Source: an uncultured Pelagibacteraceae bacterium (GTDB lineage Bacteria > Pseudomonadota > Alphaproteobacteria > Pelagibacterales > AG-422-B15). Taken from it: 54,955 nucleotides of DNA. This document shows positions 16,080 through 20,407 of this stretch, piece after piece. Each line of letters starts with the position of its first letter. The first letter of the stretch is position 1. The stretch lies in contig CACIRX010000001.1 of assembly GCA_902589175.1 (NCBI GenBank), positions 131,983 through 186,937 on the forward strand, written 5' to 3'. Both the position numbers and the translations under genes were made by a program. Under the pieces are notes generated by a model. That model made no database searches. It was not told the DNA's origin and was given only the letters and a program-made list of their open reading frames with translations.

Positions 16080-16538
16080 ATGAAAGAAGATATCTCAACC
16101 GAATTATCTAATGCTCTCAAAAATGGGGATAAAGAGAGAATCCATACATTAAGACTAGTACTAGCTGCTATTAAAGATAAAGAAATTGCAAGTCGATCCT
16201 CAGGGGAAGATTCTACTATTTCAGATGATACAATTATCAGTCTTCTCAAAAAAATGGTGAAGCAAAGAAATGATTCGATTGATATGTTCAAAAAAGCTGG
16301 ACGAGATGAACTTGTACAAAAAGAAAATAGCGAGATCGATATAATTAGTGAGTTTCTTCCTAAGCAACTTGGTGAGGAAGAGACTATGATAGCTTGTGAA
16401 GAAGCGATTGGTGCAACCGAAGCAAAATCACTAAAGGAAATAGGAAAAGTGATAAAGTATTTGAAGGAAAATAGCTCACCAGCTCTTGATATTTCGCTAG
16501 CAAGCAAACTTATAAAGGAAAGACTTCAAAATTTATAA
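16080..16538 (+). CDS. yqeY: GatB/YqeY domain protein
   Basis: A 152-residue cytoplasmic protein of the YqeY family, related to the tail domain of GatB, which helps bind tRNA in the amidotransferase complex. The standalone protein has no settled function. Visible family features are the N-terminal 'LSNALKNGDKERIHTLRLVLAAIKDKEI', the middle 'MVKQRNDSIDMFKKAGRDELVQKENSEI' and 'EFLPKQLGEEE'. Length is normal. It precedes dnaG and rpoD in the order usual for Alphaproteobacteria. The gene has no visible ribosome-binding site and starts at an ATG 46 bp upstream of the dnaG start after its stop. Confidence 0.92.
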   Translation: MKEDISTELSNALKNGDKERIHTLRLVLAAIKDKEIASRSSGEDSTISDDTIISLLKKMVKQRNDSIDMFKKAGRDELVQKENSEIDIISEFLPKQLGEEETMIACEEAIGATEAKSLKEIGKVIKYLKENSSPALDISLASKLIKERLQNL

Positions 16539-16584
16539 TATTTGATAGCTATTCTTTACTGCGCTCAAGTAATATACTTAATTT

Positions 16585-18390
16585 ATGCCTAGATATTCTA
16601 AAGAATTTATTGGAGAAATAAAATCAAGATTACGTGTCTCAGAGGTTGTAGGTAAATTTGTAAAACTCACGCAAAGAGGTAATGAATTTATTGGATTAAG
16701 CCCGTTTAAAAATGAAAAAACTCCTTCATTCACAGTTAATGATGAAAAAGAATTTTATCATTGCTTTAGTAGCGCTGAACACGGAGACATATTTTCTTTT
16801 TTAATGAAATATAAAAATATGTCTTATCCAGAATCTATTGAGTACTTGGCAAAGCAAGCAGGTATGGATCCAGAAAGAGGAATTATTAAGGACCCAAATT
16901 ATGTAGAAAAAGATTTTTCTAGTTTAAGAAGAATCATTAATGAAGCTAATGAGTTCTTTAAAGACCAGCTAAATAATAGTAGTGAAGCTAAAAAGTATAT
17001 TGAAAAAAGATCAATCGATGAAAATATAATTAAAGAATTTGATTTAGGCTATTCTGGTTCAGGACGTAATAATTTATATAACCACTTAAAAAGTAAGAAC
17101 TTGGACATTAATGATGCAATATCAACTGGTCTAATTAAAAAATCAAATAAAAAAGAAGGTGAATATTATGATTTTTTTCGTAATAGATTTATGTTTCCTA
17201 TCAAAGATTACAAATCTAACATAATTGCATTTGGAGGCAGAGCATTAGACGGTTCAAATATAAAGTATATCAATTCAGCGGATAGCGCTGTATTCAAAAA
17301 AAGCTATCAACTTTACAATTTAAATCTTGCAATTGAAGAAAATAGGAGGCCAAAAAATTTAATTATTGTTGAGGGATACATGGATGTGATTTCTTTGTAT
17401 CAAAATAACTTTAAGACATCTGTTGCTCCATTAGGAACAGCTCTTACAAGTTATCAATTAGAAAGAGCATGGAAAGTTTGTGAGAGTCCTATCATTATGT
17501 TTGATGGTGACGAAGCTGGACAAAAAGCTGCTCAGAGAGTTGCTATATTAGCATTAAATAACTTATCGCCTGATCATTCACTTCGTTTTTGTTTGCTTCC
17601 AAAAGATTATGATCCTGACGATTATTTAAAAAGAAATAGCCCAGCTAGCCTTCAAAGTATTCTTGACAGTTCTTTATCATTATCTGAATTTATTTGGACG
17701 TCAGAATTGAATAGAGAGGATATTTCTATTCCTGAAAAGAAGGCTGGTTTTGAAAAAAGAATTAATTCCTTGTCAGAGAAAATAAGTAACAAAACAGTAC
17801 GCGAGTACTATGTGAAATTCTTTAATGATAAATTAGAAGATCTCAAATATGTTAAAAGCAACTCTAAAAATTTCAATTATAAATTAAAAAGAAATAGTAT
17901 TTCTTCAGAAATATTGACAAGCGAAAGAGTAAAAAACCAGAGTCATGACTCAGTTATAAGAGAAAAAATTATCCTAATATGTTTGATAGAAAACCCATTT
18001 CTGATTAATAGGCATGCTGAAGAATTAGGAAAAATACGCTTTAATGACCTTAATTTATCATCGATATTATCTGAAATTCTGGAATTCTCAGTTGCCAATC
18101 GAGATAAAGAGCTTGAAAACTTAGATTTAAAGTCTTATTTACTGCAAAGGGGATTAAATCGAGAAATTAAATATATTTTTCAACCAAAACTGTTAAGTAC
18201 TTATAGTTCAATCATAAAAAATAGTAAGGTTGAGGTGGAAAAAAGTTTTATTGGTTTATTAGATCTGCAAAAAAATCTACTCGATGAAAATGATTTAGAT
18301 ATTGCAATAAGTAACCTAGAAGAAAAAATGGATGAGAAAAGCTTTGAAAATTTTATGAAAATAAAAAAAGAAAGTATAAGTAAGAACTAA
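16585..18390 (+). CDS. dnaG: DNA primase with degenerate zinc finger
   Basis: DnaG synthesises RNA primers at the replication fork. The 601-residue protein has all three parts: N-terminal CHC2-type zinc domain (about 1-100), TOPRIM catalytic core with '[14 protein letters not shown]' and '[14 protein letters not shown]' (about 255-340), and a C-terminal helicase-interacting region (about 420-601). In the zinc domain the four ligands (E. coli C40, H43, C61, C64) align with S39, K42, C60 and S63, so three of four are lost while the surrounding motif ('[11 protein letters not shown]', 'FYHCF', 'EHGDIFSFL') remains. It lies one base before rpoD, so the two are coupled. Confidence 0.95.
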
Positions 18391-18391
18391 G

Positions 18392-20407
18392 ATGAAAAAA
18401 AGAGGAAGAAAAAAGAGGCAAGTTAAAACTGAGGTTGAAACATCGCAATCTCAAATAGGTGAGCAAGACGGCCCAGTACTAGATCTTGAAAAATCCATAA
18501 TAAAGAAACTTATTAAACAGGGTAAAAAAGATGGATATCTTACTAATGAGTTAATTAAAAAATCATTCCCTGAAGATAAATTTACATCTGAACAAATTGA
18601 GCAATACACAACTAAATTATCCCAAGTTGGATTTGATATTATTGACTCTGATGACTCAGATAATGATGATGATAAAGAAGAAGAATCCTCTGGGACTAAA
18701 TCAGGGACAGAAAAAACTGACGATCCAGTAAAGTTATATCTTAGAGAAATGGGAACGGTAGACTTGCTCTCCCGTGAGGGTGAAATTGCAATTGCAAAAA
18801 GAATAGAAGCTGGACAAGAAGCAATGATTTCTGGATTGTGTGAAAGTCCACTTACGCTTCAGGCAATACTTGATTGGAGAGATGATATTATTGCTGAAAA
18901 AATTACTCTCAGGGAAGTAATTGATCTTGAGTCGTTATTTGAAGAATCTCCTAATAAGAAAGAGTTAAGTAAAAAAATTAAAGAAGCAAAGAAAAGAAAA
19001 GAACAAGAAGAAAAAGAAGAAATCAGAAAAAGAAAAGAAGCTGAAAAAAAATCTTCAACTTATGGTGATGATACAGAGCCAATGATTGAAAATAATAATG
19101 ATCAAATAATTGAGGAATATGAAGATGCTGATGATGAATTAAATGTTTCAATTGCCATAATGGAGGAAGAGTTAAAGCCCCAGATACTTGAAACCTTTAA
19201 AAAATTAAACAAAAGTTTTAAGAAGCTCCAAAAACTTCAAAAGGATAAAATTGCTTTTCAAGAAAAAGGTAGAGAGTTTCCTTCTAGATCAGAAAAAAGC
19301 TATCAAACGTCTAGAGCTATTGTTGTTGAACTAATCAAAGGATTACAGATAAATACAAACAAAATTGAGGAATTAATTAACAAGTTATACGTAATCAATA
19401 GGGAAATTGTTTCCTTAGAGGGAAAATTATTGAGGCTTGCCGTACAATATAAAATTTCTAGAGATGAGTTTCTTGATAAATATATTGGAAATGAAAATAA
19501 CCCATATTGGTTAAGAAAGATCACTAGACTTTCTGGATGGGAAAAATTTGTCAAACAAGAAAAAAATAATATTAAAAATATTATGAACGAAGTAAGAGCT
19601 GCTGCAAGTAATATAGGCTTAACTCTAAACGAATTTAAAAGAATAGTTAGTAATGTACAAAAAGGTGAAAGAGAATCAAGTATCGCAAAAAAGGAAATGA
19701 TAGAGGCAAACCTTCGTTTAGTTATTTCTATTGCAAAAAAATATACTAATAGAGGTTTACAATTTCTAGACCTAATACAAGAAGGAAATATTGGCCTGAT
19801 GAAAGCCGTCGACAAATTTGAGTATAGAAGGGGTTATAAGTTTTCAACTTATGCAACTTGGTGGATTAGGCAGGCAATTACTAGATCAATAGCGGACCAA
19901 GCTAGAACTATTCGTATACCGGTACATATGATAGAAACAATCAATAAGATTGTAAGAACGCAAAGGTTGCTTTTAAATGAAATAGGTAGAGAGCCGACAC
20001 CTGAAGAAATTTCTAAAAAGCTAAATATGCCTCTTGAGAAAGTTAGAAAAGTCCTAAAGATTGCAAAAGAGCCAGTAAGTTTAGAAACTCCAGTCGGAGA
20101 TGAAGAAGACAGTCATTTAGGTGATTTTATACAAGATGAGAATGCTGTAATTCCAATTGATGCTGCTATTCACTCAAATTTGAGACAAACTACAACGAAA
20201 ATATTATCATCTTTAACTCCTCGTGAAGAACGTGTTTTGAGAATGAGGTTTGGTATTGGCATGAATTCAGACCATACACTTGAAGAAGTTGGGCAACAAT
20301 TTTCAGTCACTAGGGAGAGAATAAGGCAGATTGAAGCAAAAGCGCTGAGAAAGCTCAAGCACCCAACTCGTGCAAAACTTTTAAAAAGCTTCTTAGATAA
20401 AAACTAG
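18392..20407 (+). CDS. rpoD: RNA polymerase housekeeping sigma factor (sigma-70)
   Basis: The 671-residue primary sigma factor directs RNA polymerase to housekeeping promoters. Regions in order: a basic start, sigma 1.1 (about 25-90), an acidic linker (Asp/Glu-rich, near residues 85-105), region 1.2 ('[21 protein letters not shown]'), a non-conserved charged insert (about 180-330), region 2 with '[18 protein letters not shown]', '[19 protein letters not shown]' and '[19 protein letters not shown]', region 3, and region 4 with '[16 protein letters not shown]' and the HTH '[20 protein letters not shown]'. It begins one base after dnaG. A CAU tRNA follows 42 bp downstream on the same strand. Confidence 0.98.

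What the first reader, a model, noticed from the sequence alone, without database searches (positions are those of the whole stretch)
16690..16790. DNA primase without its zinc-binding site
The DnaG N-terminal domain keeps the family context ('FKNEKTPSF', 'FYHCF', 'EHGDIFSF') but the ligands align as Ser39, Lys42, Cys60, Ser63 instead of Cys-His-Cys-Cys. Only one ligand is left, so zinc cannot be held in the usual way. In characterised primases the zinc domain reads the template trinucleotide and supports primer synthesis. Selection may have removed zinc demand in a metal-poor habitat, or the domain folds without metal.
Basis: seen in the sequence. Interest (0 to 1): 0.6.

Follow-up and report, generated by a model that had tools for sequence, protein, structure and literature searches.

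The report
DnaG primase without zinc ligands
In this marine SAR11-type bacterium the only DnaG primase found, the enzyme that starts new DNA strands, has lost three of the four residues that normally hold a zinc ion, and the same replacement recurs in about a fifth of the alphaproteobacterial families sampled, so it is a real, widespread and apparently undescribed zinc-free form rather than an error.

Summary
The window's DnaG (16585-18390, 601 aa) has Ser39, Lys42, Cys60, Ser63 where other primases have Cys-His-Cys-Cys. It is not an error: 46 further same-genus rows and all 20 sampled Pelagibacteraceae (the other family of the order) show S-[K/S/T]-C-[S/T].

It is not specific to this organism or to a metal-poor ocean. 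Of 98 alphaproteobacterial family groups read, 21 have zinc-less forms, including Methylobacterium and 4-6 Mb genomes. Genome size shows no association (p = 0.87). The pattern did not appear in about 263 other Pseudomonadota. The state is all-or-none: 112 rows, always Ser39, no intermediate; some (S-T-D-S) keep no ligand at all.

The catalytic-domain tree rejects a single origin (p-AU 1.8e-15). The zinc-less domain is under stronger purifying selection than the catalytic domain (dN/dS about 0.03 against 0.10), and no second DnaG was found. The genome keeps the zinc cysteines of DnaJ, ClpX and UvrA.

Best reading: a functional, probably metal-free version of the template-reading domain, the zinc site replaced by a conserved polar cluster. 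This is a new variant of a known kind. Metal-free folding is inferred; the structure model is poor exactly at the site. I found no paper describing it.

The parts
16585..18390 (+). dnaG, DNA primase, 601 aa; only DnaG found in the genome
   Evidence: TIGR01391 415.6 bits, cut-off 283.6; one PF01807 match in G000 (assembly 78% complete); one match per genome in the single-contig Pelagibacteraceae genomes
16597..16869 (+). N-terminal 'zinc-binding' domain (residues 5-95), zinc-less form
   Evidence: PF01807 residues 5-95, 102 bits; AF2 model nearest to 1d0q, Z 7.3 over 93 residues
16699..16701 (+). Ser39 (agc) at the first Cys ligand column
   Evidence: Ser in 112 of 112 zinc-less rows, Cys in all CHCC rows
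16708..16710 (+). Lys42 (aaa) at the His ligand column
   Evidence: K/N/T/S/Q/G in zinc-less rows, His in CHCC rows
16759..16761 (+). His59, next to the third ligand; aligns with the Lys of the A. aeolicus primase
   Evidence: alignment with 2au3; the equivalent Lys in C. difficile primase sets trinucleotide preference (PMC5204125)
16762..16764 (+). Cys60 (tgc), third ligand column, the only ligand left
   Evidence: Cys or Asp in all zinc-less rows
16768..16770 (+). Ser62, replaces Gly before the fourth ligand
   Evidence: S/A in 42 of 42 zinc-less rows of the subset, G in 43 of 44 CHCC rows
16771..16773 (+). Ser63 (agc) at the fourth Cys ligand column
   Evidence: Ser or Thr in all zinc-less rows
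16777..16779 (+). Glu65, position shifted from Ala (CHCC) to Glu/Lys (zinc-less)
   Evidence: E/K in 39 of 42 zinc-less rows, A in 36 of 44 CHCC rows
16954..17331 (+). RNA polymerase domain, N-terminal part (DNAG_N, residues 124-249)
   Evidence: PF08275 127.2 bits
17359..17628 (+). Toprim catalytic domain with EGYMD (263-267) and DGD (307-309)
   Evidence: PF13155/PF13662; motifs aligned with solved primases

Best explanation
This is the genome's replicative DnaG primase, carrying a zinc-less version of the N-terminal template-reading domain. Shown: three of four CHC2 ligands are replaced; the replacement is fixed in the sampled order and recurs across Alphaproteobacteria; the domain is kept under strong purifying selection; catalytic motifs are intact; no second DnaG was found. 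Inferred: the domain keeps the DnaG zinc-ribbon fold without metal, the tetrahedral zinc knot being replaced by a small polar cluster (Ser39, Lys/Asn/Thr/Gln42, Cys or Asp60, Ser62, Ser/Thr63, with Glu/Lys65 added) that pins the two loops together. The domain then does its usual work: it contacts the initiation trinucleotide, probably still through His59 and its neighbours, and presents the template and first nucleotides to the polymerase domain. The zinc-less state arose more than once, or its N-terminal domain was exchanged between lineages; once zinc is lost all ligand columns are rapidly remodelled.
For: All-or-none states in 219 rows: 107 CHCC and 112 zinc-less, with Ser39 in 112 of 112 and no intermediate. 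Replacement is restricted (42: K/N/T/S/Q/G; 60: C/D; 62: S/A; 63: S/T), which neutral decay would not give. In the genus, dN/dS against the window is about 0.03 for residues 5-100 and 0.10 for the polymerase domain. Some zinc-less relatives keep no Cys/His in the domain: L131, L182. No canonical CPFH motif was found elsewhere in the zinc-less genomes examined. One origin is rejected on the catalytic domain, delta lnL 172.9, p-AU 1.8e-15, at least 6 changes forced by starred branches; f30 holds both states (L137 SQCS, L191 CHCC). The domain model matches 1d0q best.
Against: No zinc measurement exists. The AF2 domain model rests on 13 near-identical sequences (mean pLDDT 75.9) and is unreliable exactly at the site (residues 42-47 and 63-66 under 50); the full-length model is poor (mean 52). 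Cys60, His59 and His66 remain in this protein, so an unusual metal site is not excluded. G000 is only 78% complete, so a second primase could be missed in this genome itself. The domain-only tree does not reject one zinc-less clade (p-AU 0.53), so the number of independent losses is uncertain.
Confidence: 0.75

Rival explanations
1. Zinc-sparing adaptation: selection in a metal-poor ocean removed zinc from DnaG to lower the cell's zinc quota.
For: SAR11-type genomes of both families of the order have the state, and their habitat is metal-poor (general knowledge).
Against: The same state occurs in Methylobacterium (L208, L209) and in many 3-6 Mb alphaproteobacteria. Genome size does not differ between zinc-less and CHCC families (p = 0.87). 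DnaJ (four CxxC), ClpX (two CxxC) and UvrA (CxxC motifs) of the same genome keep their zinc cysteines. Primase is a low-copy protein (general knowledge), so the saving would be tiny.
Confidence: 0.07
2. Protection from oxidation: loss of a thiolate zinc site removes a redox- or peroxide-sensitive point in the primase.
For: Cys to Ser (or Thr) at both outer Cys columns in every zinc-less row is what such selection might favour.
Confidence: 0.1
3. The domain still binds a metal in another way, through Cys60, His59 and His66 or by sharing ligands between two primase molecules.
For: Cys60, His59 and His66 are invariant in the window's genus and kept in most zinc-less rows.
Against: His59 and His66 are equally present in CHCC primases, so they are not replacement ligands. 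L178, L181 and L192 lack Cys60, and L131 and L182 lack Cys60, His59 and His66, yet are otherwise of the same type.
Confidence: 0.1
4. The domain is a decaying remnant, as in animal Twinkle, and the primase works without it.
For: Animal Twinkle is a T7-type primase-helicase whose primase module is inactive (PMC10557236).
Against: The zinc-less domain evolves more slowly than the catalytic domain (dN/dS about 0.03 against 0.10), is full length, and its replacement residues are restricted across the class.
Confidence: 0.03
5. Sequencing or assembly error.
For: None.
Against: Same residues in all same-genus and Pelagibacteraceae loci, many from independent single-cell genomes.
Confidence: 0.001

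Closest known systems
Bacterial DnaG primase with CHC2 zinc-binding domain (E. coli DnaG; B. stearothermophilus 1D0Q; A. aeolicus 2AU3)
   Same: Same domain order, Toprim motifs, TIGR01391 equivalog score, domain fold by sequence and by the model's best match; dnaG-rpoD order with a YqeY-type gene upstream, also seen in Sphingomonas.
   Different: Cys, His and Cys replaced at ligand columns 1, 2 and 4 (Ser, Lys, Ser); Gly62 to Ser and Ala65 to Glu beside it.
C. difficile DnaG (CD1454)
   Same: The residue beside the third ligand sets initiation trinucleotide preference there (PMC5204125); the window has His59 at that place, as most primases do.
   Different: C. difficile has Lys there and a complete CHC2 site.
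Animal mitochondrial Twinkle
   Same: A DnaG-type primase module known to have changed in its primase region (PMC10557236, PMC3610141).
   Different: Twinkle's primase is inactive and fused to the helicase; here the catalytic motifs are intact, the domain is strongly conserved, and no other DnaG was found.
C-minus forms of zinc-ribbon proteins (zinc-free paralogues of ribosomal proteins L31/L36, DksA2)
   Same: Zinc ribbon kept without its ligands (comparison from general knowledge, not tested here).
   Different: Those are usually zinc-regulated second copies; here the zinc-less form is the only copy found and replaces the zinc form throughout families.

Membership tests
DnaG replicative primase | TIGR01391 dnaG equivalog score above cut-off | tested here: met
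   415.6 bits, cut-off 283.6
DnaG replicative primase | Toprim catalytic motifs (EGYMD, DGD) and DNAG_N domain | tested here: met
   PF08275 and PF13155/PF13662 above cut-off; motifs aligned with 2au3, 5vaz and 1eqn
DnaG replicative primase | Only DnaG in the genome, in the dnaG-rpoD arrangement | tested here: met
   One match in G000 (78% complete) and one in each single-contig Pelagibacteraceae genome; rpoD starts at 18392
DnaG replicative primase | C-terminal helicase-binding domain | tested here: inconclusive
   Residues 430-601 present but no Pfam domain above threshold; this domain is poorly conserved in general (PMC6163395)
DnaG replicative primase | Primer synthesis activity | not testable with these tools
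   needs purified protein
CHC2 zinc finger (zinc-binding form of PF01807) | Sequence profile of the domain | tested here: met
   PF01807 102 bits, residues 5-95
CHC2 zinc finger (zinc-binding form of PF01807) | Cys-His-Cys-Cys zinc ligands | tested here: not met
   Ser39, Lys42, Cys60, Ser63
CHC2 zinc finger (zinc-binding form of PF01807) | Zinc-ribbon fold as in 1D0Q | tested here: inconclusive
   Model's best match is 1d0q, Z 7.3, rmsd 3.9 over 93 residues, well above the next non-primase row (Z 3.4); loops of the zinc site have pLDDT under 50
CHC2 zinc finger (zinc-binding form of PF01807) | Bound zinc | not testable with these tools
   needs metal analysis

The most novel reading that the evidence does not exclude
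About a fifth of alphaproteobacterial families replicate their chromosomes with a primase whose template-reading domain works without any metal. The state was reached several times independently from the zinc form, each time ending in the same polar cluster (Ser - polar - Cys/Asp - Ser/Thr), which would show that zinc is a replaceable structural pin in bacterial primases and not needed for trinucleotide reading.
Probability: 0.5. Interest if true: 0.62.

Novelty: new variant of a known kind. Interest (0 to 1): 0.5.

Why it matters
[quoted passage not shown] A natural, apparently functional, zinc-less series next to close CHCC relatives (for example both states inside family group f30) gives a direct comparison to separate structure from recognition. 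It covers SAR11-type bacteria, Methylobacterium and probably Caulobacter, a cell-cycle model. It also matters for antibacterial designs aimed at the primase zinc domain.

Tried and rejected
Sequencing error: rejected. Decay of an unused domain: rejected by dN/dS and by restricted replacements. Hidden second canonical DnaG: not found by profile, protein or CPFH pattern. Genome-wide zinc removal: rejected for DnaJ, ClpX and UvrA; other zinc proteins were not checked. Alternative ligands: His59 and His66 are common to CHCC primases and absent in some zinc-less ones. A single origin by vertical descent: rejected on the catalytic domain but not on the 80-column domain alignment. Nearest-neighbour identities are mixed: some zinc-less domains are closest to other zinc-less ones, others (L137, L142, L108) closest to CHCC relatives. 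So parallel change and domain exchange both remain open. A Lys42-Glu65 salt bridge: weak tendency only (Fisher p = 0.03, not corrected for descent; the window's genus is counted twice in that table under two names). Eight paper searches found no description of zinc-less bacterial DnaG; the library is open-access only. Full-length AF2 model too poor to use. Naming family group f65 as Caulobacteraceae rests only on phage Sansa nesting in it and on genome sizes; a DNA search for a named record of f65 in the plasmid collection did not give one.

Full report
WHAT IS THERE. The ORF at 16585-18390 (+) encodes a 601-aa DnaG. It passes the NCBI dnaG equivalog model at 415.6 bits (cut-off 283.6) and has DNAG_N and Toprim domains with EGYMD and DGD motifs. 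Its N-terminal domain matches the CHC2 profile over residues 5-95 (102 bits). At the four ligand columns it has Ser39 (agc), Lys42 (aaa), Cys60 (tgc) and Ser63 (agc).

NOT AN ERROR, NOT PECULIAR TO THIS GENOME. The window lies in a 1.1-Mb, 78%-complete genome. Its nearest named relatives are genomes labelled Pelagibacteraceae, mostly single-cell isolates by their titles. All 46 other same-genus rows have S-K-C-S or S-K-C-T, and all 20 genomes of the other family of the order have S-[K/S/T]-C-[S/T] (some genomes appear twice under two sources).

DISTRIBUTION. I read DnaG from the class at roughly one genome per family group, plus extra members. Zinc-less forms occur in 21 family groups and CHCC forms in 78, one of which (f30) has both, so 98 groups in all (sampling was weighted towards better-scoring matches, so the fraction is approximate). 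A DNA pattern for the zinc-less motif matched 23 of 398 Pseudomonadota genomes; every match lay in the class (about 135 genomes) and none in the other 263 or so (the pattern misses Gln, Gly and TCN-Ser at column 42, so 23 is a lower bound). The canonical CPFH pattern matched 276 of 385 genomes of the class and none of the zinc-less genomes I had read that were in that draw. Named zinc-less examples are Methylobacterium bullatum (L208, SNCS), the M. extorquens AM1 megaplasmid copy (L209, SQCS) and Caulobacter phage Sansa (L215, STCS). The phage sequence nests inside family group f65 (STDS/SNDS), which is therefore probably Caulobacteraceae (inference). Named CHCC examples are Rhizobium, Sinorhizobium, Sphingomonas, Paracoccus, Tistrella and an E. 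coli plasmid record.

ALL OR NONE. In 219 aligned rows, including the window, there are 107 CHCC and 112 zinc-less, with no row in between. Ser39 is present in 112 of 112 zinc-less rows; column 60 is Cys or Asp; column 63 Ser or Thr; column 42 Lys, Asn, Thr, Ser, Gln or Gly. Apart from the ligands, the columns that differ most between the two states are 62 (Gly to Ser/Ala), 65 (Ala to Glu/Lys) and 36 (to Val/Ile), all beside the site. L178, L181 and L192 have lost all four ligands, and L131 and L182 have no Cys or His in the domain at all. So a DnaG of this type can exist with no conventional zinc ligand.

EVOLUTION. On the catalytic-domain tree (residues 105-420, ligands not included) the zinc-less rows do not form one clade: delta lnL 172.9, p-AU 1.8e-15, at least 6 changes forced by well-supported branches. 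A tree of the N-terminal domain without the ligand neighbourhoods (80 columns) does not reject one clade (p-AU 0.53). Either the change happened several times and the domain converged, or the domain was exchanged between lineages. Identity comparisons point both ways. Since no zinc-less match appeared outside the class in the phylum and the solved primases of other phyla carry CHC2, loss is the likely direction (inference).

IS IT FUNCTIONAL. Against same-genus orthologues the domain has a median dN/dS of about 0.03, the polymerase domain 0.10 (synonymous sites are partly saturated, so the ratios are approximate, but pN is also three times lower in the domain at equal pS). The domain is therefore more constrained than the catalytic part, the opposite of decay. 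His59, whose counterpart in C. difficile primase (Lys70) sets the preferred initiation trinucleotide (PMC5204125; correspondence inferred from the 2au3 alignment), is retained.

WHY NOT METAL SCARCITY. Zinc-less and CHCC families do not differ in genome size (medians 3.0 and 2.5 Mb, p = 0.87). Methylobacterium is not a low-metal ocean specialist (general knowledge). The same genome keeps four CxxC motifs in DnaJ, two in ClpX and the CxxC motifs of UvrA.

STRUCTURE. The AF2 model of residues 1-110 from 13 close sequences has mean pLDDT 75.9 but is below 50 at residues 42-47 and 63-66, the site itself. Its best solved match is the B. stearothermophilus primase zinc domain 1d0q (Foldseek E 2.8e-4; Z 7.3, rmsd 3.9 over 93 residues), then A. 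aeolicus 2au3 (Z 5.7), with unrelated rows at Z 3.4 and lower. This supports the same overall fold and says nothing reliable about the site. The full-length model is too poor to use (mean pLDDT 52).

MECHANISM. Most likely the two loops that zinc normally clamps are held by a polar cluster of Ser39, Lys42, Cys60, Ser62 and Ser63 with Glu65, and the domain still reads the template and hands it to the polymerase domain. Shown: ligand loss, conservation, intact catalysis motifs, no other DnaG found. Inferred: metal-free fold, polar cluster, retained template reading.

KNOWN OR NEW. A review describes the three Cys and one His as highly conserved and the exact role of the zinc motif as unresolved (PMC6163395). 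Eight searches of the open-access library found no account of zinc-less bacterial DnaG; subscription papers are not covered. I file it as a zinc-less variant of DnaG: a member of the DnaG family by sequence, but not of the zinc-binding CHC2 form.

Noticed in passing
L215 (Caulobacter phage Sansa, KT001913.1 60711-62567): The phage carries a full DnaG of the zinc-less type that nests within bacterial family group f65, suggesting capture of a host dnaG.
   Followed up: partly
L209 (Methylorubrum extorquens AM1 megaplasmid NC_012811.1, about 907545-908882): A diverged, plasmid-borne zinc-less DnaG (SQCS), on a long branch in the tree; probably a second primase beside the chromosomal one, which was not examined.
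   Followed up: no
L178, L181, L192, L131, L182: A sub-type in which even the last Cys has become Asp (S-T/N/G-D-S); in L131 and L182 no Cys or His remains in the N-terminal domain.
   Followed up: partly
L137 and L191 (family group f30): Two genera of one family group differ in state (SQCS against CHCC): a good pair for biochemical comparison.
   Followed up: partly
window 16080-20407: Gene order YqeY-type gene, dnaG, rpoD, with the YqeY-type gene and dnaG 46 bases apart and dnaG and rpoD one base apart; a YqeY/dnaG/rpoD order is also seen in Sphingomonas (L210), while Sinorhizobium (L212) has recQ after dnaG.
   Followed up: no
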